A program made the translations under genes and the position numbers. The notes under the pieces are model-generated. The model was not told where the DNA came from. It worked only from the letters and a program-made list of their open reading frames with translations, and made no database searches. From a virus, in the IMG/VR virus record IMGVR_UViG_3300027848_000085, positions 1 through 26,075 of that record: a stretch of DNA of 26,075 nt; one strand, 5' to 3'. Shown here one piece after another: positions 1 to 16,700 of the stretch (position 1 is its first letter; the number at the start of each line of letters is the position of its first letter).

Positions 1-232
1 CCTTGCGTGACATCAGCCCGTCCGGGCCATCAGCATTGAAGCGGATCACCCAATCCCGCACGACCTGCAGCGTCACGCCAGCCGCTTTGGCCGCTTCGCT
101 CCGGCTGCTGCCGTCCAGGATCAAGCCCAACGCCAACAACCGCCGTGCCTGATCCAGATCGTCACATCGTCGGGAAAATCGGCTCAAATCCCTCGAAGTG
201 AAATCTGATCGAACACCAATCGCCGTCGCCAT
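1..232 (-). CDS. IS630-family transposase, N-terminal part (cut by window edge)
   Basis: Translation from the ATG at 230-232 gives about 77 residues before the window ends, so the C-terminal catalytic DDE domain is outside. The visible part is a DNA-binding region: a short N-terminal arm (MATAIGVRSDF) and a helix-turn-helix with LARRLLALGLILDGS-like spacing (the sequence reads QARRLLALGLILDG), then SRSEAAKAAGVTLQVVRDW and RFNADGPDGL. This order and the ending WVIRFNADGPDGL are typical of the winged HTH at the start of IS630/Tc1-like transposases, which bind the element ends. The start is supported by a GAGGAGG Shine-Dalgarno about 7 nt upstream. The gene points out of the window, so I cannot say whether it is intact. 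Confidence 0.8.
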   Translation of the reverse strand, partial: MATAIGVRSDFTSRDLSRFSRRCDDLDQARRLLALGLILDGSSRSEAAKAAGVTLQVVRDWVIRFNADGPDGLMSRK

Positions 233-860: not shown

Positions 861-1055
861 TCACCCAATCCGCGCCTTGGCCGTCTTCCGAAATACAACG
901 CTACTAATACCGGTCAGCGCCAGCACCACGGTCAGCACATCGGCCTGGCTGAGGCCATCCGGCAGTAAACCGAGCATGCCGGCCACGCCCCAGACGCTGC
1001 CGATGACGCCGGTCCAGATGGCCTTCGACGCCCACCAGGGTTTCAGATCTTCCAT
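861..1055 (-). CDS. Holin-like two-helix membrane protein, 64 aa (left copy)
   Basis: The product has a charged, Trp-rich start (MEDLKPWW), a first hydrophobic helix at about residues 11-31 (KAIWTGVIGSVWGVAGMLG), a short loop, a second helix at about 39-55 (DVLTVVLALTGISSVVF) and a basic C-terminus. This layout is that of small phage holins, which form lesions in the inner membrane to release endolysin. It is a paralogue of the protein at 9163-9357: 48 of 64 residues are identical by direct comparison. The ATG at 1055 was chosen because GGAGAA lies 5 nt upstream and because it matches the start of the right-hand copy. It follows the truncated endolysin and a terminator-like hairpin. It is intact as an ORF but probably a prophage remnant. 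The holin role is inferred from topology and position. Confidence 0.7.
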   Translation of the reverse strand: MEDLKPWWASKAIWTGVIGSVWGVAGMLGLLPDGLSQADVLTVVLALTGISSVVFRKTAKARIG

Positions 1056-1068
1056 GTCATTTCTCCAT

Positions 1069-1093
1069 AAAAAAGCCCGCAGGAAACGCGGGC
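1069..1093 (-). terminator. Terminator-like hairpin between endolysin remnant and holin (left copy)
   Basis: On the minus strand a 6-bp GC stem (GCCCGC with GCGGGC) closes a 7-nt loop and is followed directly by six T residues, the form of an intrinsic terminator. The T-run ends about 2-4 nt before the GGAGAA ribosome site of the holin gene. The same arrangement with a different stem sequence lies at 9372-9393. Confidence 0.75.
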
Positions 1094-1122
1094 GGTTGCA
1101 GGTTCGTGAAGGTGTTGGCCTG

Positions 1123-1493
1123 TCAGGCCTCGTTGGCGGACAGCGCCCCACTGGCGGCGAGCTGGACCGGCTTGGCAGTCGCAGGCGCCTTGCGGTAGAT
1201 CGGCTGGCGCACGGCAACGCAGCGGTCGCGGGCGATCCGGGTAATGGTCACGCCGTCGGACTGGTTGCCGCCGAGCACGCGGTAGGCGCCGTAGTCCTCG
1301 CCAACATAGAGTCCGACATGGCCGGAACTCTCAGCGCGGCGGAACACCAGCACATCACCGAGCTGCGGCTCATCGGCAGCTTTGCCGAACGTGGCCCAGT
1401 TCCGCGCCCAGAGCGGCCCGTCGACGACTGCCTTGCCAGCGCGCTTGGCGACCACGGCCATGAATAGGCCGCACCACGGGATGGCGTCGGCAG
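1123..1493 (-). pseudogene. Endolysin (TIGR02594-type), truncated 3' copy
   Basis: This matches the C-terminal 122 residues of the endolysin at 9440-9976, with 100 of 122 residues identical by direct count. It keeps the putative catalytic residues: Cys in PWCGLF, His in GHVGLYVG and Asn in GGNQSDGV. The first 56 residues or so are missing: similarity stops sharply at 1493, immediately before the sequence upstream of the topoisomerase gene. The reading frame stays open further right only because it runs antisense to the topoisomerase, and no appropriate start codon with a ribosome site was found at the junction. It is therefore called a broken gene left by a related prophage. Confidence 0.8.
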
Positions 1494-1542
1494 GTTCTGT
1501 TTGGCAAAAATTCGTCAGATGACAGCTTGCGGCAGGCTTGTG

Positions 1543-1571
1543 TTCACTATACGTTCTGCACGGAGTATACG
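1543..1571 (+). promoter_or_regulatory. Possible sigma-70 promoter for the topoisomerase gene
   Basis: TTCACT (1543-1548) and TATACG (1566-1571) are separated by 17 nt and resemble -35 and -10 boxes with four of six matches each. TATACG also occurs at 1549-1554, so the site contains a spaced direct repeat that could be an operator instead. The position, 26-54 nt before the ATG at 1597, fits a promoter. Prediction by eye only. Confidence 0.35.
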
Positions 1572-1596
1572 CAGCGCCTCTCTGACCGGAACTCAA

Positions 1597-3879
1597 ATGG
1601 CCGATCAAATCGTCATTACCGAAAAGACCAGCCAGGCGAAAGACGTGCGCGCTGCGATTGGCTCTCGCTATGGTGAAGTGCTCCCCGCCGAGGGTCATTT
1701 GTTTGATCTCGCGGAGCCCGAAGATGCGGTTCCTGAGTGGAAGCGTTGGTCGCCAATCCTGCTGCGCCCCGAAGGGCTCTACGCCACCCGGCCGGCACAC
1801 GGGGGCAACAAGGCGTCCAAGCTGAAAGCTATCCGCGAGGCGCTGCGGTCCGCCAAGCGGGTCTGGCTCGCCACCGATTGCGACCGCGAAGGCCAGCTTA
1901 TCGGGCAGGAAATTCTCGAGCACTACAATTACCGCGGCGAGGTGATGCGAGTGCTGTTCACCGCGCAAGATCCCCAGACCATCCGCGACGCGTTCAGCCG
2001 CGCCAAACCCAATTCAGAATATGCTAGGCTTTATGCCGCCGCGGTTGCTCGCCGCCAGGCCGACCAGATCTACAACCTGTCGCTAACCCGAACCGCGACG
2101 GTGATCCTGGGGAGAGGGTCCAAGGGCGTCATCGGGGTTGGCCGTGTAAAGACGCCGACACTCGCCATTGTATGTAAGCGCGAGCTGGAAATCCGCGACT
2201 TCGTCCCCGTGACTTATTTTGAGATCGTTGCCACCGCCAAGGTTGCGGGCGGTCAGTTCAATATGCGCCATGCACCGCAGGAGCGGATCCTCAAGCGAAA
2301 GGATGCCGAGATCGTCGTCAAGGCCGCATTGGACTTTGAGGGCCCGCTTGGGGTGCGCGTTGAAGACAAGCGCCAGGGTCCGCCCAAGCTGCATGATTTG
2401 CCCTCGCTGCAGAAGCTCTGCGCCTCGCGCTTCAGCTGGCCGGCTGCCAAGACGCTGGAAGTCGCGCAGGAGCTGTATGACGGCCAGGGCAAGAAGATCA
2501 TCACCTATCCTCGCGCCGAAGTGCGCTATTTGCCGGAAAACCTGATCGGCGACGTGCCCAAGATCGTGGCTGGCCTGCAGGTGGGCCAGTCATTCAAAAC
2601 TATCCCGGTGCCGCCATCGCCGGTGATCCGTAAGGGCTCAAACGGTTCGTTCCACGACAAGGGACTTGAGGGCGCCAGCCATCATGCCGTGATCCCCAAC
2701 GTCAATACGATCGACAGCCTGCGCGAAGTCTGGCCGCGTCTTTCCAACGACGAGAAGAAACTGTTCGACGTGATTGCCCGCGCGTATTTGGCCTCGCTCA
2801 TGCCGGACTTTCGCTATCGGCAAACTACCGCGACGATCGATGCCAACGGTTTTCCCTTCAAGGCGACCGGTCGCCAGCCGCTGGATCTTGGTTGGCGCGC
2901 CGCCTTTCCAGAATGGCAGCCGGCCGATGAGAAAAGCGACGATGCGCAATTGCTGCCGCAGATGAAAAACGGCGAGACGGCGCGGCTGCTGAACCCGACC
3001 ATCGAGAACAAAGAAACCCGCCCGCCGCCGCGCTATAACGAGGGCACGCTGATCGAGGCGATGCAGAACGCCTGGCGTTTTGTCGGCGATGAGGTTTTGC
3101 GCGACCGACTTAAAGAAGCCAAAGGGATCGGCACACCGGCGACACGCGCTGAAATCATAGGCGGGCTTAAGCGTCAGGACTTTCTGACCATTCAGGCCAA
3201 GAACATCGTTCCCACTGCAACCGGGCTGACTTTGTACGGCGTTCTTCGGACAGCGGATCCGGCGCTGGTCGATCCTGGCGTTACGGCACAACTCGAATGC
3301 CTGCTCGACGATGTCGTCGTTGGCAAACAAGAGATGGTCAGCGCCATCGATGCCGTATGCGACGTGGCGCTGCGCATCATCGGCAAGCTGAAGGATGGCG
3401 CGCCCGGTGGGTTGCCCCCCTTGTATGGGGCGGCCTCACTTAGTGGTGGCGGCGAGCGTCCCCCAACACCGGCGATGAAGCAGTATGCTATAACCCTAGC
3501 CCGCCAGAAACGCGCCAAACTTCCGGATGGCTATGCAGTGACTGGCTCCATCTGTAGCGGCTTCCTCGAACAGCACGCGCCCAAAAAGGCAGGCGCTAAA
3601 ACAGGCATGAAAAAATCTGCTAAGCCGCCAGCGGAGGATACGTCCACCCCTCGATCCACCATGCCAAAAAAGCGGACCCGCAAACCCAAAGCAAGTGTCG
3701 CCACGATTGTCGGCGTATCCCCTCCTGACATTCAGAAGGCCGAAAACAACACGCCGTTGCGAATTCCTTTCGGCAACAAGGAGGTCGCGCAGAAACTCGG
3801 CGCACGTTATGGCGCCGGCGGATGGTATGCGCCGCCGGGTGTCAATCTCCATCCCTTCAGCAAGCAGGGTTGGCTATGA
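1597..3879 (+). CDS. Type IA DNA topoisomerase (topoisomerase III-like, mobile-element type)
   Basis: The 760-aa product cuts and passes single DNA strands to relax or decatenate DNA. The TOPRIM domain opens the protein: Glu9 in ITEK, GHLFDL at 33-38 and the metal-binding ATDCDREG at 92-99. The VGRVKTPTL motif lies at 181-189. The catalytic Tyr304 is in ITYPRAEVRYL, followed by a conserved His in ASHHAVIPN and the GIGTPATRAEII motif. No four-cysteine zinc fingers are visible. Instead there is a region like those of MGE topoisomerases (TPAMKQYAITLARQKR), a Lys/Pro-rich linker, and a DUF5710-like module in the last 40 residues (IPFGNKEVAQKLGARY...GGWYAPPGV). Such tails are common on plasmid and ICE topoisomerases and primases. 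The ATG at 1597 was preferred to 1501 because conserved sequence begins at MADQIVITEK. It is opposite in strand to the prophage and is probably not a phage gene. Confidence 0.92.
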   Translation: MADQIVITEKTSQAKDVRAAIGSRYGEVLPAEGHLFDLAEPEDAVPEWKRWSPILLRPEGLYATRPAHGGNKASKLKAIREALRSAKRVWLATDCDREGQLIGQEILEHYNYRGEVMRVLFTAQDPQTIRDAFSRAKPNSEYARLYAAAVARRQADQIYNLSLTRTATVILGRGSKGVIGVGRVKTPTLAIVCKRELEIRDFVPVTYFEIVATAKVAGGQFNMRHAPQERILKRKDAEIVVKAALDFEGPLGVRVEDKRQGPPKLHDLPSLQKLCASRFSWPAAKTLEVAQELYDGQGKKIITYPRAEVRYLPENLIGDVPKIVAGLQVGQSFKTIPVPPSPVIRKGSNGSFHDKGLEGASHHAVIPNVNTIDSLREVWPRLSNDEKKLFDVIARAYLASLMPDFRYRQTTATIDANGFPFKATGRQPLDLGWRAAFPEWQPADEKSDDAQLLPQMKNGETARLLNPTIENKETRPPPRYNEGTLIEAMQNAWRFVGDEVLRDRLKEAKGIGTPATRAEIIGGLKRQDFLTIQAKNIVPTATGLTLYGVLRTADPALVDPGVTAQLECLLDDVVVGKQEMVSAIDAVCDVALRIIGKLKDGAPGGLPPLYGAASLSGGGERPPTPAMKQYAITLARQKRAKLPDGYAVTGSICSGFLEQHAPKKAGAKTGMKKSAKPPAEDTSTPRSTMPKKRTRKPKASVATIVGVSPPDIQKAENNTPLRIPFGNKEVAQKLGARYGAGGWYAPPGVNLHPFSKQGWL

Positions 3880-3989: not shown

Positions 3990-4709
3990 TTAAAAGGGCG
4001 GGTGAAACCAACGGGTAGCCATCATAACTTTTCCGGCCAAACCCGAAGAGTAGTAGGCCTGAACCAATTCTGCTTCCGCGATACTCAGCACGGGCAATGG
4101 CTTTGCTGCCGCATTGAGCTGCGGTATCTCGACGGTGGCGCCGTCACCACCGAACCTATCTACTATCCGCCTGAGTCCGACCTCGTATTCAGCAAAATTC
4201 AAGACGGTGGCGCCGGGGTGATACAACCATTCGGACTGCGACCGATAAAAACTGAGATTGCCTCCCCGCGGCTGAAAATGGACACCAGGAGCAGGTGGCG
4301 GTGGCAGAACCCCGAGGATGTCGCCCGGAGAAATGTCGTCGACAGCAGCGCGCAGTTCCGGCGATACGGCCTGCTTGTCGTTTTCAAACCACCTCCAATG
4401 GGGCTGAATACCGACGAACCGCTCCGGAAATAGCTGGATGAACGAGTTCGGCAGGCATCGTCTGTGGAACTCCACAGCTGAACAGAACCTCTCAACCGGA
4501 TCCCGCCAGAACGCATAAATTGAGGTTGGCGCGATCGTCTCGCCTGGGAATCGCGCCTCTGCCAGCTGGATCGCTTCCGGCACCGTTGGATGCCGGCCCA
4601 TCTCACCAAAAAGATCGACACCGATTTGCCCAAGCACGGCGCGGGCCGTCTGCGACCCGTTCTTCGGCACGCCGATGAACAGCGTCTGGCGGTCATGCGA
4701 AATGATCAT
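3990..4709 (-). CDS. Sulfotransferase family protein at the end of the tail-fibre module
   Basis: The 239-aa product looks like a PAPS-dependent sulfotransferase, which moves a sulfate group to a sugar, lipid or protein hydroxyl. The 5'-phosphosulfate loop is near the start (FIGVPKNGSQT, residues 11-21). The 3'-phosphate motif is at 68-77 (WRDPVERFCS), with the Arg, Asp-Pro, Arg and Ser pattern expected of the Sulfotransfer_2-type family. No signal peptide or membrane segment is seen, so it is probably cytoplasmic. It starts 5 nt after the stop of the propeller-containing tail gene and lacks a strong ribosome site, so it is likely translated by coupling as the last gene of the late operon. 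Its substrate is unknown; host surface glycan or a phage appendage protein are both possible. The fold assignment is fairly secure and the role is inference. Confidence 0.75.
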   Translation of the reverse strand: MIISHDRQTLFIGVPKNGSQTARAVLGQIGVDLFGEMGRHPTVPEAIQLAEARFPGETIAPTSIYAFWRDPVERFCSAVEFHRRCLPNSFIQLFPERFVGIQPHWRWFENDKQAVSPELRAAVDDISPGDILGVLPPPPAPGVHFQPRGGNLSFYRSQSEWLYHPGATVLNFAEYEVGLRRIVDRFGGDGATVEIPQLNAAAKPLPVLSIAEAELVQAYYSSGLAGKVMMATRWFHPPF

Positions 4710-4714
4710 GGCTG

Positions 4715-6106
4715 TCAGATCCCAGTCGTGGTGTTGGAATAGGAGCCGGCCGCGAAGCTGTAGGACGGCGTGGCCGAGGTCAGTGACCGGCTGAGCAGTG
4801 AGAAACTGCGGGTGGTCAGCGACGAGAAGGTCGTACCGATGCTGGGCGTGGAGGCGCTGTAGGTTACGCTCTGTGTCGAGGCGCCCGCCACGGACCAGGT
4901 GCCAGTTTTAGAGCCATCCGCCGGTACCTTGAACACAGCGCCGCACAGATCGTAGTAACCATAGGGTGCAAAATCCATCGTGGTATAGACGGAGAACACC
5001 ATCGCCGTGGAACTGACCGCCAGACCCGTGAAGCTAAAGGTGTTGGCCCCATTGCTGGTATCGAGACTGATCGAGCGTGCCAGCAGCAAGGTGCCATCAG
5101 TCGAAAACTGATAGATGTCCGCCCCGGCATAGATCGGCGCGAAAACCCGCAGACTGCCGTCCGGGCCCAGGTTTACCGAGCCACTGCCGTTGCTGGATGG
5201 CAGAGACAGCTGCCACTGGATGACAGCAAGCGAACTGATCTTGAGCAGACTGAGCGCGCCGTTGACGCCTGCCAGCCAGTAAATGTTGCTGCCGCTGTCG
5301 ACCACAACGCCGTAGCCGTAATCGTAGCCCGCGCTCCCGATCGAGCGCTGCCAGCTGACCGATGGGGTGGCCGTGTTGATGACGGTGATCAGGGCATCGG
5401 AGTTGCCTGCGGTCGAGGTCGAGGTGTTGCCCGACAGGACCAGCAGACTGCCGTCCGGACTGAGCGCCATCTGGCTGGCATATTCATTACCGGAGCCGCC
5501 GATCGACCGCTGCCACTGGAGTGTGCCAGCGCTGTTGTATTTGGCGATCAGCGCGTCGGCATTGCCAGAACCGCCGCTCGAGGTCGAATAGCCAGCGACA
5601 TAGACGTTGCCCGAAGCATCGACAGCCGAATTGTACCAAAGCTCTTGGCCGGAGCCATTGAGGCTGCGCTGCCATTGCAGGGTTCCCGAGGTGTTGAGCT
5701 TTGCCAGCCAGGCGAAGTAGTTGCTCGAATAATAGGCGCCGGCCAGATAGACATTGCCGCCGGGATCGACGCAGCCCCCGTTGATGAAGGGCCCGGACAC
5801 GGTCCGCGCCCAGATAAGCACGCCGTCGCGGTCCCATTTAAACACGGCGGTGCTTGCGCTGGCGTAGATGTTGCCGCTGCTGTCGGTGCCCAGGATCGTG
5901 AAATTGACCACGGTCGCGCCGAAGGTGGCATGCCAGAAGCTCTCGTTCGACTTGCCATAGAGGTTGGAGAGCGAGATTGGACCCGATGCGACACCGGCCA
6001 GCGCGCGCACGGCTGCTTCTCCGAGCGACGTCGTGGTGGTCGAGCTGCGGCCCAGTTCCACCGCGACATTCCCAAGCGATATGGGACCCGAACTCTGCAG
6101 CGTCAT
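4715..6106 (-). CDS. Tail appendage protein with phage-type N-terminus and beta-propeller-like repeats
   Basis: The 463-aa product begins with a module found at the start of many phage tail proteins: GPISLGNVAVELGRS, then AAVRALAGVASGPISLSNLYGKS (residues about 7-53). This is probably the virion attachment part. From about residue 55 to 350 there are repeated units of the type D-x-x-G-N-x-Y-x-A-G followed by a Lys/Asn strand and L-x-W-x-R-S; WQRSLNGSG, WQRSIGGSG and WQRSIGSAG mark three of them. This is the pattern of SBBP/NHL-like propeller blades, which often bind glycans. The last 100 residues are Ser/Thr-rich and may be a trimerisation or tip region. The start codon overlaps the previous stop (ATGA). 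Likely a receptor-binding or decoration protein on the tail. Confidence 0.75.
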   Translation of the reverse strand: MTLQSSGPISLGNVAVELGRSSTTTTSLGEAAVRALAGVASGPISLSNLYGKSNESFWHATFGATVVNFTILGTDSSGNIYASASTAVFKWDRDGVLIWARTVSGPFINGGCVDPGGNVYLAGAYYSSNYFAWLAKLNTSGTLQWQRSLNGSGQELWYNSAVDASGNVYVAGYSTSSGGSGNADALIAKYNSAGTLQWQRSIGGSGNEYASQMALSPDGSLLVLSGNTSTSTAGNSDALITVINTATPSVSWQRSIGSAGYDYGYGVVVDSGSNIYWLAGVNGALSLLKISSLAVIQWQLSLPSSNGSGSVNLGPDGSLRVFAPIYAGADIYQFSTDGTLLLARSISLDTSNGANTFSFTGLAVSSTAMVFSVYTTMDFAPYGYYDLCGAVFKVPADGSKTGTWSVAGASTQSVTYSASTPSIGTTFSSLTTRSFSLLSRSLTSATPSYSFAAGSYSNTTTGI

Positions 6107-6963
6107 GCGCGTGCCTCGAGGCGATCCACTTTGTCAGCCAGTTCCTTCACGGCCTCGATCAGCACGCCAACGAGGTTGCCGTAGGCAACGGACAGCAGCC
6201 CGTCTTCATGGGTCATGACCGCCTCGGGCACGACGGGCGCCAGTTCCTGGGCAACAAGACCGATACCGCGGCTGCCGGTGTCGCGACGGGTATAGGTCAC
6301 CCCGCGCAAGGCACGGACCCGGTCCAGGGCATTTGCGATCGTTTCGATGTCAGCCTTGAGCCGGGCGTCAGAATAAGCGGTGATGTCACCGGTCGCGGTG
6401 ATCGAGCCCGATACTGAGATGCTTCCGGTGAAGCTGTCGCCGGCCTTGTTGGCCGGCGTAAATCCAAGCGCCGCGATCACGTCGCCAGAGGTCATCGCCA
6501 AACCCGCCGTAACACGGCCTTTGGCATCAACCGTGACCTTGAGATAGGTCCCGGCGGTCGCCCCGCTGTTGGCCAGCGTCGCGGCAAAAGTCAGTGCGGC
6601 CGAGCCGTCGAAGGCGGCGCTGGTGCCGGTAATATCGCCGGTGAGCGCGATCGTCCGCCCCGTTGCCCACCTGGTCGCGGTTGCGGCATTGCCCGTGCAC
6701 GATCCCGACGAGCCAGTAATCGAGCCGCTGCTGGTTATATAACCGCTGGGATTGGTCGCATTGTAGGGCGTGAAGCCCAGCGCGGTCGTCACCAGGGCCG
6801 AGGTGAGATTGCCAAAGCCCACCTGCACGACGGTGCCGCCGGCAGTCTTCGAATAGAGCTTCTGGTCGACAAGATTGACCGCGAGTTCTCCTGCCTGCAG
6901 CGAGCCCGCAGCCGGGACACTTGAAGCAGTTGAAGAGCGTTTAAGCAGGATGGTGCTCGGCAT
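6103..6963 (-). CDS. Tail fibre protein with C-terminal peptidase S74 chaperone domain
   Basis: The 286-aa product opens with a short fibre head (ILLKRS...AGELAVN...KLYSKTAGGTVV) and continues through fibre repeats (LTGDITGTS, ATLANSGATAGTY, VTVDAKGRVTA, GFTPANKAGDSFTG). The C-terminal part from residue 198 is an intramolecular chaperone of the S74 family: SDARLKADIETI, LRGVTYTRRD, GIGLVAQELAPVVPEAV, YGNLVGVLIEAVKEL. The autoproteolytic dyad is visible as Ser198 and Lys203 in S-D-A-R-L-K, so cleavage is expected between Tyr197 and Ser198, releasing an 89-residue coiled-coil chaperone after trimer folding. Its start overlaps the previous gene's stop by one base (TGATG). Confidence 0.88.
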   Translation of the reverse strand: MPSTILLKRSSTASSVPAAGSLQAGELAVNLVDQKLYSKTAGGTVVQVGFGNLTSALVTTALGFTPYNATNPSGYITSSGSITGSSGSCTGNAATATRWATGRTIALTGDITGTSAAFDGSAALTFAATLANSGATAGTYLKVTVDAKGRVTAGLAMTSGDVIAALGFTPANKAGDSFTGSISVSGSITATGDITAYSDARLKADIETIANALDRVRALRGVTYTRRDTGSRGIGLVAQELAPVVPEAVMTHEDGLLSVAYGNLVGVLIEAVKELADKVDRLEARA

Positions 6964-8504
6964 CAGAAGGTTCCACCATCCAGCGTCACGCCATCGATCG
7001 AACCACCGGTGATCGCGACATTGCTCGCGGCCTGTGTGGACATGTTGCCGAGCCCGGAAATATCGGTGTTGGGGATCGTCGCGGACGCGGTGAAGGCCGA
7101 GGTGCCGTTGCCCTTGAGGTAACCAGTCAGAGTGGTCGCACCTGAGCCGCCCTTGGCCACGCCCAGAGTACCACCAAGGTTGCCCAGCGTGAGGCTCGCT
7201 TCATTGACGTCCAGGGTCGGATTGCCAGCAACGCCGTCCCCATTTGTCACCGTAATCCTGGTCGAGCCGGCCGTGAGCGCGCGTGCCGCAACCGTTCCAG
7301 AGCCCGTGCGGGCAATGATCCCGTTGGCGGCGAGATTGTGGAGAGTAAGCGCCTGGCCGGTGAGGCCGACAGTTGTGGCGGTGACCGCGATCCCGGTTCC
7401 TGCACCGACCTCAAGCGTGTTGCCGGTCTTGGTGAGGCCATTGCCGGCAACGATCTGCCCGGCGCCATTGAACTGGACGAAAGTGATCGCGGTGGTGCCC
7501 AGCGTGCCGCCAGCGTCGACGGTGCACAAAAGCCCGATGTCGGCGTTGACCGTACCTTGTTCGACAAAGAGATAGGCTGCGACATGCTCGTCCCAGGTCG
7601 AGAGATCGAGCGCCCGGGACCAGGTGCTCGCGGCAACAATGTAGATGCCGTTGGCACTGGCTGCGGTTTGGTCTTTTACCAGCACGCGGTCACCGGCCAC
7701 CAAAGCCACGCCGTCGATGGTCATGGTGCCTGAGAGCGAGGCAATATTGGAGGTGGACGCTGCTCTCACAGAGGCCTTGGGATCAAGCCCCTGGATCGTC
7801 AGGTCGACATAGTTCTTGGTCGCCGCATCCTGCGCCGCTGTGGGTTCCGCGAGGCCAGTAATGCGCTGGCTACCCATGCCCACATCCGCCGTTGGTGCGG
7901 CCAGCTGGTCGAGCCGGTTCGCGCGGACCCGGGCGTCGGTGTAATAGAGGTTAATGCCTTCCGACACGTCGCTGGTGGACAGGGTTATCGCGCCGGTACG
8001 CCCGGCGACCGAACTCACTGGGAACGTGATCGCGAGATTGCTCGCCGCCGTCACCCGGCCTTTAGCGTCAACCGTGATCTGCGAGGCCTGCGTGGCCGAG
8101 CCATAAGTTCCGGCGGTGACGCCGCTGTTCGCCAGGGTCGCTGCGATCATCGCATTGGCCGTACCGTTGAACGAGGCTGCGCCGGTTACATCTCCCGACA
8201 GTCCCAGCGTGCGCGACGTCGCCAGCGCAGTCGCTGTCCCGGCATTGCCCGAGATCGAGCCTGCGATCGTGCTCGAAAAGGTCTTGGTGCCAGCAATGGT
8301 TTGGTCGCCCGAGACCGAAACAAAACCACCAGAACCGCCGATAGCGATGACCGAGGTGGCGGTGCCGCCGGCGCCGCCCGTGCCGGTGCCATAATAGAGC
8401 GTATTGTCCTGCTCGTTGAACGCGAGCTCGGCATTGGCAAGCGATGCAGGAGCACCGGCACCGCCGCCCGCAGCGCGGCGCTTGATGCGTAGGGTATTGG
8501 CCAT
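6963..8504 (-). CDS. Tail fibre protein, 513 aa
   Basis: The protein has a basic start (MANTLRIKRRAAGG) and the module SLANAELAFNEQDNTLYYG, homologous to the start of the S74 fibre downstream. Further sections are Gly/Ala/Thr-rich beta repeats: GDQTIAGTKTFSS, GLSGDVTGAASFNG, ATLANSGVTAGTYG, QITVDAKGRVTAASN, YYTDARVRANRLDQL, then AAQDAATKNYVD at about residue 230, and LVKDQTAASANGIYIV, which resembles part of other phage fibre stalks. The C-terminus (GGTLGVAKGGSGATTLTGYLKGNG) is another common fibre motif. No S74 chaperone is present, so this is probably a stalk section that combines with the downstream fibre. It is joined to both neighbours by one-base TGATG overlaps. Confidence 0.82.
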   Translation of the reverse strand: MANTLRIKRRAAGGGAGAPASLANAELAFNEQDNTLYYGTGTGGAGGTATSVIAIGGSGGFVSVSGDQTIAGTKTFSSTIAGSISGNAGTATALATSRTLGLSGDVTGAASFNGTANAMIAATLANSGVTAGTYGSATQASQITVDAKGRVTAASNLAITFPVSSVAGRTGAITLSTSDVSEGINLYYTDARVRANRLDQLAAPTADVGMGSQRITGLAEPTAAQDAATKNYVDLTIQGLDPKASVRAASTSNIASLSGTMTIDGVALVAGDRVLVKDQTAASANGIYIVAASTWSRALDLSTWDEHVAAYLFVEQGTVNADIGLLCTVDAGGTLGTTAITFVQFNGAGQIVAGNGLTKTGNTLEVGAGTGIAVTATTVGLTGQALTLHNLAANGIIARTGSGTVAARALTAGSTRITVTNGDGVAGNPTLDVNEASLTLGNLGGTLGVAKGGSGATTLTGYLKGNGTSAFTASATIPNTDISGLGNMSTQAASNVAITGGSIDGVTLDGGTF

Positions 8505-8788
8505 CAGAAATTACCTCCGTCGACCAGTCTGGCCGCTTTCTCGTTGATCCATGTGTTGTTGGGGGATGAGTAAGTGAGCACGTCGCCGCCCTCGGGGGTG
8601 GCAAGCGCCACGTCAGAAAGATCGGTCAGCGCGCTCAGTGGCCCCGGCGGTCCAAGCGGCCCAGGGGGACCGGCGAGCCCGCGCGGACCCGATATCCCTG
8701 CGCTGGACACATCAAGGGTGACGCTGGTGCCATCACTCTCGACAAGGATGGTCTGGACCGTCTCGACGATCTGGAGTGCGGCGCTCAT
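8504..8788 (-). CDS. Small collagen-like tail protein, 94 aa
   Basis: A beta-prone first part (residues 1-33) is followed by six Gly-X-Y triplets at 34-51 (GPRGLAGPPGPLGPPGPL), which can form a collagen-like triple helix and act as a trimer clamp. The C-terminal section, LTDLSDVALATPEGGDVLTYSSPNNTW written in parts as LTDLSDV, GGDVLTY and NNTWIN, is a motif met in phage fibre proteins. The gene overlaps its neighbours (ATGA upstream, TGATG downstream), so it belongs to the fibre operon. Probably a connector or short fibre component; no enzyme activity is indicated. Confidence 0.72.
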   Translation of the reverse strand: MSAALQIVETVQTILVESDGTSVTLDVSSAGISGPRGLAGPPGPLGPPGPLSALTDLSDVALATPEGGDVLTYSSPNNTWINEKAARLVDGGNF

Positions 8789-9096
8789 TCGACGTCAAAT
8801 GTGAGGGTCGGCAGGACCTCACGCTCTCCGCTATCGTTCTCGAATCCCAGGGTCAGCCAGACCTTGCCGGCACCGGGCGCCAGAGGTGCGGTCTGCTCAT
8901 CGCTCCACAGCACTTCGATCTGGCCGCCCGATGCAGGCGTCAGGATGGCAAGCAAAGGCGGCGTAATGTTGGGGCTCTGATCTATGACCATCAGGGTCAG
9001 CCCCGAGATGTCCCGGGACAGCCCCGCGGCCTGACCGGCAAAGAAGGTGGCGCGCACGCGCTTGGTGCCGCCCCGGCGGATGGTCAGCCTGGTCAT
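8785..9096 (-). CDS. Small phage appendage protein, 103 aa
   Basis: This beta-rich protein begins MTRLTIRRGGTKRVRATF and ends GEREVLPTLTFDVE. The pattern, a basic start followed by alternating strands (SGLTLMVIDQSP, QIEVLWSDEQTAPL, GKVWLTLGFEND), resembles the small immunoglobulin-like or BppU-like N-terminal domains of phage baseplate/fibre proteins, though I cannot place it in a family with confidence. The ATG at 9096 has AGGTG 6 nt upstream. It is the first gene after the holin and its terminator-like hairpin, and it overlaps the next gene by ATGA. Confidence 0.6.
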   Translation of the reverse strand: MTRLTIRRGGTKRVRATFFAGQAAGLSRDISGLTLMVIDQSPNITPPLLAILTPASGGQIEVLWSDEQTAPLAPGAGKVWLTLGFENDSGEREVLPTLTFDVE

Positions 9097-9439: not shown

Positions 9440-9976
9440 TCAGGCCTCGTTGACGGACAGGATGCCGCTAGCCGCGAGATGCACGGGCTTCGCTGTCAAA
9501 GGAGCCTTGCGATAGGGAGGCCGGCGCACAGCGATGCAGCGGTCCTTGCCGATCCGGGTGATGGTCACGCCGTCAGACTGGTTGCCGCCCAGCACATGGT
9601 AAGCGCCGTAATCCTCGCCGACATAAAGCCCGACATGGCCAGATGCCTGACCGCGGCGAAACACCAGCACATCGCCCAGCTGGCCTTTGTCGGATGCCTT
9701 GCCAAACTTGGCCCAGTTACGCGCCCACAGCGGTCCCTCAACGATCGGTTTGCCGCCGCGTTTGGCGACGACAGCCATGAATAGGCCGCACCAGGGGATT
9801 GAGTCGGCAGTGAATATCTTGGCGAGGCTGGTTTCTTTGGCCCAGTCCAGAATGACGGGATTGTTGGCGGGCCCAGACACTTCGAGGGTGCCATAAAGCT
9901 TGCGGGCTTCATCCAGCATCCGGGGTAGCGGACGCAGGTCATCGATCCAGCCATAGGCTGGTGGCAGCGGGTTCAT
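9440..9976 (-). CDS. Endolysin, TIGR02594/NlpC-P60-like cysteine peptidase
   Basis: The 178-aa product is expected to cut peptidoglycan during lysis. It begins MNPLPPAYGWIDDLRPLPRML; a family-typical first part (EARKLYGTLEVSGPANNPVILDWA) is followed by the catalytic motifs Cys63 (IPWCGLF), Arg/Trp-rich WARNW, GQLGDVLVFRR, His114 (SGHVGLYVG) and Asn132 (LGGNQSDGV). This series is typical of the TIGR02594 family, related to NlpC/P60 and CHAP peptidases. No signal peptide or membrane anchor is seen, so export should need the holin. The ATG at 9976 was chosen over an upstream start because AAGGAG lies 8 nt before it. It follows the 74-aa membrane protein gene by 20 nt and precedes a terminator-like hairpin and the holin. 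Confidence 0.85.
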   Translation of the reverse strand: MNPLPPAYGWIDDLRPLPRMLDEARKLYGTLEVSGPANNPVILDWAKETSLAKIFTADSIPWCGLFMAVVAKRGGKPIVEGPLWARNWAKFGKASDKGQLGDVLVFRRGQASGHVGLYVGEDYGAYHVLGGNQSDGVTITRIGKDRCIAVRRPPYRKAPLTAKPVHLAASGILSVNEA

Positions 9977-13724: not shown

Positions 13725-16700
13725 GCTGCAACCCGTGTGGAAATGGCATCGCCGTCGGGCGTGACCCGCTCCAGAATGCGTGCAGTTTTGCTGGTCCCGG
13801 ACGCGATCGTGGCTGCAGCGATCCGCTGTTCGTCACGAAGGTCGGACATTTCTTGCCGGAGTGCCTTGAGTTCATCGATCATCGCGGTCTGCCCGTCATT
13901 GGCCGGGACCGTCGCCGCGCCGATCTGGTTGGCAGCGAACTGGTCCCACCAGTTGGGCGTGGTGGCGGCAGATGTCGCAGCAGCGGGATCCGTCCTGCTC
14001 GCCTGATTGATAATCGCCAATGTCTGTTCGAGGCTCGCCGCGGTCAGACCCTGAAGCCGTGCCAGATCTTCGGCTGACCGGGCGGTGTTGGCTGCGACCG
14101 AGAGCAGAGCCTGGCTCAATCCTGGCAGCATTTTGGCCGCTTCCTGGTCTCCAGCGCGCGCGAGCATCGAGGCGTTATTGAATGCAGCGAGCGCCGATGC
14201 ATAATTTGTCGGGTTATCACTCATCACGCCCCGGATCCGCTTAATCTCCGCGATCAGCCCCTCGGTGATCTGGGCCCATGCATTGCGGAGCTTCTCCGCG
14301 GCATTGGCGGCATCCTCGGCAGCCTTTTGCTGGTCTTCGAGCGCCCAGACCTGTTCCTGCAGTGCCTTGTTGGACGCATCGATCTGGGCAAGGTCGAGTG
14401 CTCGCAGTGCCGCAGTATCGCCCTGTAGTTCCAGCGTCCGCCGCTCAAGTGAAAGCCGCTCATCAAGAATGGCAGCGGCACTGGCGGCATCCTGCGCTGC
14501 GCCCACAAGACCAGCAAACGCCGGGGCGAGCTGGATCAGCGCTGCATAGGCGGCCTGTCCTGATGTCGTGCTAAGATCCTGTGCTTCAACCAGCGCTCGG
14601 AAGCCTGCGATGCTGCCGGGAAGCGCAAGTCCGAGGCTGTCAAAGACCCTGGCCATCTGCGCGGTCTGCGCTGAGGCCTGCTCGGCCTTGGTATAATAGA
14701 GGGCAAAATACTCACCCGTGGCAGACGCCAAGTCGCTGGCGGAGCCGAATAGGTCGAAGAGGTTCATCTTCTCGCTGAGGCTGAGACCCACAACCGAGCT
14801 GCCCAGCAGGCTGAGCGAACTGGTGACCGCCTCGATGCTGGAAGCTACGCGAACCAGCGTCTCAAAATAGCCTTCGCCAACTTGTCTAAACTGCTCGAGG
14901 CCCGGCACCGCAGTGCGGGCGAGATTATCGGCTGCAGCGCCAAAGACTGCGGTCAGCTTCTCCTGGATCTCCGCGCCGGTCAGCCCCTTCAAATCGATCT
15001 TACCGATGTTGACAACAAAGCCGGAAAGGCGGGACTGAACCTCGCCGAGCGACATACCGAGAGGGCCGGCGGCTGCCGAGATCGCGCTGTAGAAGCCTTC
15101 GAAGATCAGGCTGAACTGGCGTTCGAGTTCGGCGTCAGCCGCCGTGTATTGCGTAGAGTAGCTCGAGCCGGTGCTGATCCCGAGGAACTTCTTGGTCTTC
15201 TTGATGTCGGAATAATAGCTCGCGTCATAGCCGCCCGACATGATCGATCCGAGCGACTGCGCGCCGCCATAGATGCCCTGGCCAACGATGCTGGTCTTGG
15301 TGCCGAACAGGGCGGTGACGATGCTGCCGAGGACCTTGCCCAGACCGCCCAGCAGCTTGGCGCCCAGAAAGCCAATGGCAGCGCCAATCGGCCCGGCGAC
15401 CGCCATGCCGATGCCGGCACCAATCAGCGAGCCTGTCTTGCTGCTGGCAAAGTTGGAGATGCCGGTCAGCATTGAATTGGCTGTGCCCAAAAGCCCGGTG
15501 AGTTTGGCGCCGGTCTGGATACCGGCGGCCGATCCTTCCATGCCGTTGGTGCGAATGATCAGATTGGTGAGCCCGCCGATATTGGCCTCGATGCTCTTGA
15601 GTGATGTGAGCATGGCAGCGGAATAGCGCATGGTCAGCGTGTCGACCTCGCGCAGATGGTCGATCGCCTTGGCAATGCTCTCCGATTTGGCGGCGCTGTC
15701 GCCAAAGACAGTACCGGTGCCGTCATTGGCAGGCGTGGGCTTGGTGCCGCCACCGCCAAAGGCCCCGCCGATTGCAATGCCCAGCGAGGCTATCACGGCG
15801 GCGGTGGCGGCCCCTGCGGCAATGTTGAGCGGAAACGGCAGAGAGCGGATGGCATTGACCACGGCTTCGACCGCTTTGATCCCGGTGGTTATGATTGAAT
15901 TGCCCTGTTCGACGCCAGCCCGCGCCGTGTCGGAGACCGCCATGGCTGTGTCGCTGGTCACCTTGGCCGTCGTCTGCGCGCCGATCAGGCCAATTTTCAC
16001 CGCAGCGTTTTTGATCGCGATGGCGAGTTCAAAGGCGCGGAACACCTTCTCGGCAGCAGCCATGGCTTTGAAGCCATCCGAACCGTCTTTGAAGAACCCC
16101 TTCGCGGCTGAGGCGAGGTTGCCATAATGGTTGATCTCGGCCGAAGCTTGGGCTGCCCGCGCGTCAGCATATTGAAACGAGGTGCGTCCGTACTCCCGCT
16201 CGGCATCGGCGACGCGGCTAGCGGCGGCTGCCTGGGCTGAAGCAAAGCGGGTGATCTCGACCGTGATGGCGCCGATCGCGCCGCCGACCGAGCCAAAGGC
16301 ATCAGCCATATTGCGCGCCGCCACTTCTGTAGCGGAGACCATGTCGTCGAGGCTCTGCAGGAACTGGTCCTGATCTTCTCGAGCGAAACCGGCCTCCATC
16401 AGACCAGTGCGTGCTGCGCGATATCGCTCCCAGGCCTCGGCCCCGCGTTCGAGAACGATCTGCTCGCGTTCGGCCTCGATAGTAGCAAGCGCCTGCGCCC
16501 GGGCCGACTGGCCAAGCAAAGCGACCTGCTGTTCAAGCGGGGCAACCGTCTGGCGCAGGAACTCGGACGTGGCGAACACGCGGGTGGCCTGTTCCCAGGC
16601 TTCGCCCGCCTCAAGAATAGCGATGCGCGCCGCGTCGGTTGGCGCCTTCAGCGCCGCCATGGCGACTTCCATGCGTTTGATTTCAATCGGGGTCTTGCCG

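What the first reader, a model, noticed from the sequence alone, without database searches (positions are those of the whole stretch)
3990..4709. PAPS-type sulfotransferase coupled to the last tail-appendage gene
Both PAPS-binding motifs are visible and the gene is 5 nt from a propeller-bearing tail gene, so it is likely expressed late with the receptor-binding module. Sulfation by a phage of its own appendage, or of host surface glycans to block superinfection or adsorption to debris, would be unusual. The function is inference.
Basis: partly seen in the sequence, partly recalled or inferred. Interest (0 to 1): 0.6.

Follow-up and report, generated by a model that had tools for sequence, protein, structure and literature searches.

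The report
Phage sulfotransferase paired with propeller tip
The last phage gene of this tail operon encodes a diverged sulfate-transferring enzyme that, in related prophages of sphingomonad bacteria, is found right behind one particular propeller-shaped tail protein, which suggests (but does not prove) that sulfation helps that tail protein deal with its host receptor.

Summary
The gene is real: window 3990-4709 (-), 239 aa, 5 nt after a beta-propeller tail gene. It belongs to an isolated family of about 226 aa, found here only in Sphingomonadales prophages and metagenome phages. The PAPS-binding residues (K16, S19, T21, R69, S77) are invariant in 14 homologues. No curated family recognises it above its cut-off. 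Profile comparison ties residues 1-82 to Pfam Sulfotransfer_2 proteins (92-96% probability; controls <0.5%). The C-terminal 140 residues could not be tied to any family, and the AlphaFold model was unusable. The gene is under purifying selection: strong in the PAPS half (pN/pS 0.13), weaker in the presumed acceptor half (0.40). Linkage is specific: every intact close homologue of the propeller is followed by this gene. Relatives of the same phage with another tip, or a 41%-identical propeller, lack it. It probably relies on late tail transcription and host-made PAPS. Most likely it is a cytoplasmic PAPS sulfotransferase acting on a host envelope glycan seen by the propeller tip (receptor masking). 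Sulfation of the propeller itself is less favoured, because its sequence barely varies and does not track the enzyme. The substrate is unproven. Phage sulfotransferases are known; one tied to a receptor-binding cassette appears new.

The parts
3990..4709 (-). Diverged PAPS-type sulfotransferase gene (239 aa; family length about 226 aa)
4647..4667 (-). 5'-phosphosulfate-binding loop PKNGSQT (residues 15-21), presumed catalytic Lys16
   Evidence: invariant in 14 homologues; aligned with PKTGTHS of L042 and PKCAGTS of L225
4479..4505 (-). 3'-phosphate-binding motif RDPVERFCS (residues 69-77; Arg69 and Ser77)
   Evidence: Arg69 and Ser77 invariant; aligned with RNPFDRFIS of L042 and RDPLERFGS of L225
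3993..4043 (-). Non-family C-terminal tail (residues 223-239), read from sequence beyond the homology breakpoint
   Evidence: homologues end ...YYxxDLPL* and DNA homology stops here
4710..4714 (-). 5-nt gap between propeller stop and sulfotransferase start (3 nt in the other loci): likely translational coupling
4715..6106 (-). Beta-propeller tail-tip protein (463 aa; N-terminal 57 aa shared with alternative tip proteins)
   Evidence: SBBP 5.9e-8, phrog_8401 3.9e-20, AlphaFold pTM 0.70 with propeller matches, modular N-terminus
6103..6963 (-). Tail fibre with C-terminal S74 chaperone domain
   Evidence: PF13884 1.1e-13, phage tail fibre families
6963..8504 (-). Fibre/decoration-type structural protein, same conserved block
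   Evidence: phrog_2647 2.3e-49; same position in the sulfotransferase-carrying loci
8504..8788 (-). Short collagen-like tail protein, same block
   Evidence: weak tail-protein families, Collagen 0.0057, below the curated cut-off
8785..9096 (-). Small protein, first gene of the distal tail block
   Evidence: conserved position in related loci

Best explanation
The gene encodes a cytoplasmic PAPS-dependent sulfotransferase of a diverged, phage-restricted branch of the Sulfotransfer_2-like superfamily, translated together with the propeller tail-tip protein at the end of the late operon. It takes PAPS that the host makes with its CysN/CysC-type enzyme and most likely sulfates a host envelope glycan (or its cytoplasmic precursor) that the propeller tip recognises. 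This would change the receptor late in infection, or in any lysogen that expresses the gene, so that progeny and sister phages do not stick to debris or re-infect the cell. Shown: gene, motifs, homology of the N-terminal third, purifying selection, linkage to one tip type, an APS kinase in most carrier genomes. Inferred: catalytic activity, late expression, substrate, receptor masking.
For: Identity: K16, S19, T21, R69 and S77 are invariant in 14 homologues. All 14 members hit phrog_3347 (galactose-3-O-sulfotransferase) as best phage family, though sub-threshold (E 0.02-0.12). A profile of the family finds two chromosomal proteins, L042 and L225 (E 5.9e-4 and 6.6e-4), that are Pfam Sulfotransfer_2 (5.5e-17 and 6.7e-8). 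hhalign of residues 1-82 gives 92-96% probability, E 1e-7 to 1e-8, against 0.2-0.4% for reversed or shuffled controls. Function kept: pN/pS 0.28 overall, 0.13 in residues 1-110. Linkage: propeller directly upstream in L001-L016. A separate scan with the propeller returned the same 7 viral contigs, all carrying the gene. In 401 Sphingomonadales genomes the propeller occurs in 4 and all 4 carry the gene. In an anchor scan with a conserved upstream tail gene, 7 of 7 contigs with the full propeller have the gene and 0 of 7 assessable contigs with another tip, no tip or a diverged propeller have an intact copy. Substrate supply: APS kinase in 7 of 8 carrier genomes. Glycan rather than tip protein: the presumed acceptor half evolves faster (pN/pS 0.40) while the propeller is nearly fixed (0.11), and their distances correlate weakly. 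Precedent: RBP genes in Drexlerviridae are thought to lie with cognate superinfection exclusion proteins (PMC8594841).
Against: No family model reaches its cut-off for the window protein and no solved structure matches by sequence. The C-terminal 140 residues show no detectable homology to sulfotransferases, and the AlphaFold model is unusable (pLDDT 41.6). Linkage of neighbouring genes can arise from one acquisition and shared recombination; the loci are related and some are near-duplicates (L002, L010 and L011; L004 and L015). The faster C-terminal half could reflect relaxed constraint rather than changing acceptors. Nothing shows that the envelope glycans of these hosts are sulfated.
Confidence: 0.38

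Rival explanations
1. The enzyme sulfates the propeller (or another tail protein) during virion assembly, for example on Tyr or Ser/Thr, to tune receptor binding.
For: It sits directly behind the propeller gene and only with this propeller type. The propeller has 20 invariant Tyr, 14 of which are not Tyr in the propeller of L080, which lacks the enzyme; Tyr count 23-26 versus 17. A cytoplasmic enzyme made with its substrate would be convenient.
Against: No invariant Tyr has more than 2 acidic residues within 5 positions. The propeller is nearly invariant while the acceptor half of the enzyme diversifies, and their distances correlate less (r 0.38) than those of structural genes with one another.
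Confidence: 0.2
2. It is a lysogenic-conversion or metabolic cargo gene at the prophage edge that sulfates a host lipid, polysaccharide or small molecule for the benefit of the lysogen, unrelated to the tail tip.
For: It is the last or next-to-last phage gene before host DNA, and that host DNA differs between genomes; a serine recombinase lies at the other end in G001 and G002. Phage sulfotransferases are usually listed as auxiliary metabolic genes.
Against: No promoter-like site and a 3-5 nt gap suggest late tail expression, not lysogen expression. It is lost when the tip is exchanged, which cargo should not follow so strictly.
Confidence: 0.25
3. It is a hitch-hiking or decaying gene that merely travels with the propeller by recombination and has no present function.
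For: The C-terminal half is more variable; some copies are broken or truncated (L006, L018) and one relative keeps only residues 192-224 (L065).
Against: pN/pS is 0.28 overall and 0.13 in the PAPS half at synonymous divergence near 0.5, and all PAPS residues are invariant.
Confidence: 0.08
4. The protein is a non-sulfotransferase P-loop-like protein (for example another nucleotide-binding transferase or a tail chaperone) that kept only the PAPS-like N-terminal motifs.
For: Homology is limited to residues 1-82 and no curated family passes its cut-off. Small proteins behind tail-fibre genes are often chaperones (general knowledge).
Against: All PAPS-contact residues are invariant and the N-terminal half is the most constrained part. 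Two independent Sulfotransfer_2 proteins align through both motifs.
Confidence: 0.09

Closest known systems
Pfam Sulfotransfer_2 (PF03567) proteins, e.g. L042 and L225 in sphingomonad and other alphaproteobacterial chromosomes
   Same: N-terminal 82 residues with 5'-PSB loop, 3'-PB Arg/Ser and similar spacing
   Different: Below the Pfam cut-off; C-terminal 140 residues not alignable; the relatives lie in non-phage clusters (Asp/Asn hydroxylases, other sulfotransferases)
phrog_3347, phage 'galactose-3-O-sulfotransferase', and the short sulfotransferase of Stenotrophomonas phage DLP6 (AAY80_051)
   Same: phrog_3347 is the closest phage family, reached sub-threshold by all 14 members; DLP6 also encodes a short sulfotransferase
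   Different: The DLP6 gene lies in the replication region beside DNA polymerase and UvsX, not in a tail module
Receptor-binding protein plus superinfection-exclusion loci of Drexlerviridae (and T5)
   Same: Gene directly beside the tail-tip/RBP gene that is exchanged together with it (PMC8594841)
   Different: Those genes are described as exclusion proteins, not enzymes; here a putative cytoplasmic transferase with untested phenotype
Marine phage sulfotransferases reported as auxiliary genes (OM43 phages, Sulfotransfer_3)
   Same: PAPS sulfotransferase genes in phage genomes; function stated as unclear (PMC10580990)
   Different: Different Pfam family; no link to a tail-tip type reported there

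Membership tests
PAPS-dependent sulfotransferase superfamily | 5'-phosphosulfate-binding loop with conserved Lys near the N-terminus | tested here: met
   PKNGSQT, invariant in 14 homologues
PAPS-dependent sulfotransferase superfamily | 3'-phosphate-binding Arg and Ser 8 residues apart downstream of the loop | tested here: met
   R69 and S77 invariant; aligned to RNP..RFIS and RDP..RFGS of bona fide members
PAPS-dependent sulfotransferase superfamily | Sulfotransferase fold over the whole chain | tested here: inconclusive
   AlphaFold pLDDT 41.6; C-terminal profile comparison not significant
PAPS-dependent sulfotransferase superfamily | PAPS binding and sulfate transfer | not testable with these tools
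   needs biochemistry
Pfam Sulfotransfer_2 (PF03567) | Score above the curated cut-off | tested here: not met
   no hit for the window protein; best E 0.06 among 14 members
Pfam Sulfotransfer_2 (PF03567) | Homology to accepted members | tested here: met
   residues 1-82 only: hhalign 92-96%, controls <0.5%
phrog_3347 phage sulfotransferase | Significant profile match | tested here: not met
   E 0.02-0.12 over all 14 members; best 4.8e-4 in a single-record search
RBP-linked superinfection-exclusion module | Gene adjacent to the RBP gene and exchanged together with it | tested here: met
   that the propeller is the receptor-binding protein is itself inferred
RBP-linked superinfection-exclusion module | Exported protein that blocks the receptor (as in T5; general knowledge) | tested here: not met
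   by inspection of the translation: no hydrophobic N-terminal segment or lipobox, and the PAPS loop begins at residue 15; no signal-peptide predictor was run
RBP-linked superinfection-exclusion module | Exclusion phenotype | not tested
   needs phage and host assays

The most novel reading that the evidence does not exclude
A receptor-binding-protein cassette that carries its own sulfation enzyme: tail-tip type and envelope (or virion) sulfation are exchanged as one module, an enzymatic form of receptor-linked superinfection exclusion based on sulfate instead of acyl or glucosyl groups.
Probability: 0.35. Interest if true: 0.75.

Novelty: new variant of a known kind. Interest (0 to 1): 0.5.

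Why it matters
A published survey states that the function of phage sulfotransferases remains unclear (PMC10580990). This family gives a concrete hypothesis, because its presence depends on which tail tip the phage carries. If receptor-linked sulfation is confirmed, it would be a new way for a phage to alter its receptor, and it would make envelope sulfation of sphingomonads (environmental bacteria) testable with laboratory lysogens.

Tried and rejected
Direct family hits (Pfam, NCBIfam, PADLOC, PDB by sequence) gave nothing for the window protein. AlphaFold on the 14-member alignment failed (pLDDT 41.6), so no fold search or PAPS docking was done for it. Annotated phage and plasmid records hold no relative. 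Scanning viral contigs with the family alignment added no new contig, and a scan with L042 found none. Stop-codon read-through into a propeller-enzyme fusion was considered because the gap is 3 nt and in frame in the other loci; rejected because the window has a 5-nt, out-of-frame gap. Long att repeats were sought around four prophages and not found. Sulfotyrosine-like sites in the propeller were sought and none was convincing. A Pfam survey of sulfotransferases in 81 genomes found only 3 chromosomal genes.

Full report
What is there. The window is a virus record (G000, 26,075 bases) holding the structural half of a siphovirus-like phage: terminase, portal and capsid at the right, tape measure, distal tail genes, then the gene in question. 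The ORF 3990-4709 (-) is intact, 239 aa, and starts 5 nt after the stop of the propeller gene 4715-6106. The propeller gene is supported by SBBP repeats (5.9e-8), a phage propeller family (phrog_8401) and an AlphaFold model with pTM 0.70 that matches propellers in the PDB and in phages. The gene before it is a tail fibre with an S74 chaperone domain.

Family. tblastn-confirmed relatives were found in 7 viral contigs and 11 genome contigs, labelled mostly as Sphingomonadales (Sphingobium, Novosphingobium, Sandarakinorhabdus, Erythrobacteraceae and Sphingomonadaceae bins). L002, L010 and L011 are the same or nearly the same sequence, as are L004 and L015, so the distinct set is smaller than the count. 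None is in annotated phage or plasmid records. A profile search of 401 genomes of one family and 385 of the class found known carriers plus only two remote chromosomal proteins, L042 and L225. Homologues are about 226 aa; the window's last 17 residues are not family sequence, and DNA homology stops in the last codons.

Is it a PAPS sulfotransferase? Both motifs are present; a pattern of both with suitable spacing occurs once in a million shuffles. K16, S19, T21, R69 and S77 are invariant among 14 members. No curated model passes its threshold for the window protein; all 14 members reach phrog_3347, a phage galactose-3-O-sulfotransferase family, at E 0.02-0.12. The bridge is L042 and L225: the family profile finds both (E about 6e-4), both pass the Pfam cut-off for Sulfotransfer_2, and hhalign links residues 1-82 of the family to them with 92-96% probability (E 1e-7 to 1e-8) while reversed or shuffled profiles give 0.2-0.4%. 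Residues 83-226 could not be linked, and AlphaFold failed on the shallow alignment. The enzyme assignment is therefore good for the PAPS-binding part and open for the acceptor part. I put about 0.85 on a PAPS sulfotransferase (judgement).

Selection. Median pN/pS is 0.28 for the enzyme (0.13 in residues 1-110, 0.40 in 111-226), 0.11 for the propeller and 0.08 for a tail gene further upstream, at synonymous differences of 0.4-0.5. The gene is kept by selection; the presumed acceptor half changes faster.

Linkage to one tip type. The propeller lies directly upstream in L001-L016 (L017 has no upstream DNA and L018 is rearranged). A separate scan with the propeller alone returned the same seven viral contigs. 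In 401 Sphingomonadales genomes the propeller was found in four, all carriers. A less biased test used a conserved gene 8 kb upstream as anchor. Of the resulting loci, seven have the full propeller and all seven have the enzyme, complete or cut by a contig end or rearrangement (L051, L052, L056, L057, L062, L063, L095). Among related loci with enough downstream sequence that lack this propeller (L060, L065, L066, L067, L070, L080, L094), none has an intact enzyme. Five of these carry a tip of about 155 aa that shares only the first 57 residues or so with the propeller. L070 passes from the fibre directly to the next gene. L080 has a 41%-identical propeller and no enzyme. L065 keeps residues 192-224 as a remnant, which shows loss together with exchange of the tip. 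A simple exact test on 7/7 versus 0/7 gives about 3e-4 (my arithmetic), but the loci are related (L060 and L067 are near-identical in this region), so this is descriptive.

Expression and supply. The gap is 3 nt (TGA-CCC-ATG or a close variant) in the other loci and 5 nt in the window, and no sigma-70-like promoter was found nearby, so translation coupled to the late tail transcript is likely (inference). Host DNA begins a short distance after the gene, in several loci after one further 125-aa gene, and differs between genomes; a serine recombinase lies at the opposite prophage end in two genomes (by eye). Seven of eight carrier genomes encode an APS kinase within ORFs of 640-730 aa, consistent with CysN/CysC fusion (the fusion is my reading of the ORF length), so PAPS should be available.

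Mechanism. Three readings remain: host glycan modification linked to the tip (receptor masking), modification of the tip protein, and prophage cargo. Dependence on the tip type and the likely late expression speak against plain cargo. The near-invariant propeller, the weak distance correlation (Mantel r 0.38, p 0.07, against 0.65-0.77 between structural genes) and the lack of acidic sulfotyrosine contexts speak against the tip protein as substrate, without excluding it. I therefore prefer a host envelope glycan as acceptor, with the precedent that RBP genes in Drexlerviridae are thought to lie with cognate superinfection exclusion proteins (PMC8594841). No step from activity onward has been shown.

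Known or new. Phage sulfotransferases are known: DLP6 carries one in its replication region, marine phages carry Sulfotransfer_3 genes of unclear function (PMC10580990), and they are listed as auxiliary genes elsewhere. My literature searches found no report of one tied to a receptor-binding cassette; only open-access papers were searchable. I rate it a new variant of a known kind.

Noticed in passing
window 861-1500 (-) with 1501-3879 (+): A second holin/endolysin fragment (resembling the pair near 9440) abuts a DUF5710-bearing type IA topoisomerase gene; the endolysin seems to lose its N-terminus at the junction, as if a second prophage remnant or a mobile element joined here.
   Followed up: partly
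window 2-232 (-): Helix-turn-helix transposase-like fragment (IS630-like by eye) running off the window end.
   Followed up: no
L004:10689-11057 (+): A conserved 125-aa protein of unknown family follows the sulfotransferase after about 8 nt in many loci; it also occurs in relatives without an intact enzyme (L065, L070, L086, L087), so it is independent of it.
   Followed up: partly
L006:10001-10944: The sulfotransferase is fused after residue 151 to a second copy of the S74 fibre end and propeller start at the contig end: recombination or an assembly artefact.
   Followed up: no
L060:14905-15372, L065:16168-16632, L094:16173-16640: Alternative tip proteins of about 155 aa share the propeller's first 57 residues (a putative attachment domain) with an unrelated C-terminal domain: modular tail-tip exchange.
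   Followed up: partly
L225:645-3266: Three sulfotransferase genes in a row (two Sulfotransfer_2, one Sulfotransfer_1) in an alphaproteobacterial chromosome, possibly a sulfated-polymer cluster.
   Followed up: no
L211:2220-10811: Cluster with a large protein resembling a TonB-dependent receptor, a TPR protein, two Asp/Asn hydroxylase-like proteins and a sulfotransferase; a possible peptide-modification locus of unknown role.
   Followed up: no
window 16198-16294 (+): ARAGORN tRNA-Pro call lies antisense inside the tape-measure gene and is probably false; Rfam gives no hit.
   Followed up: partly
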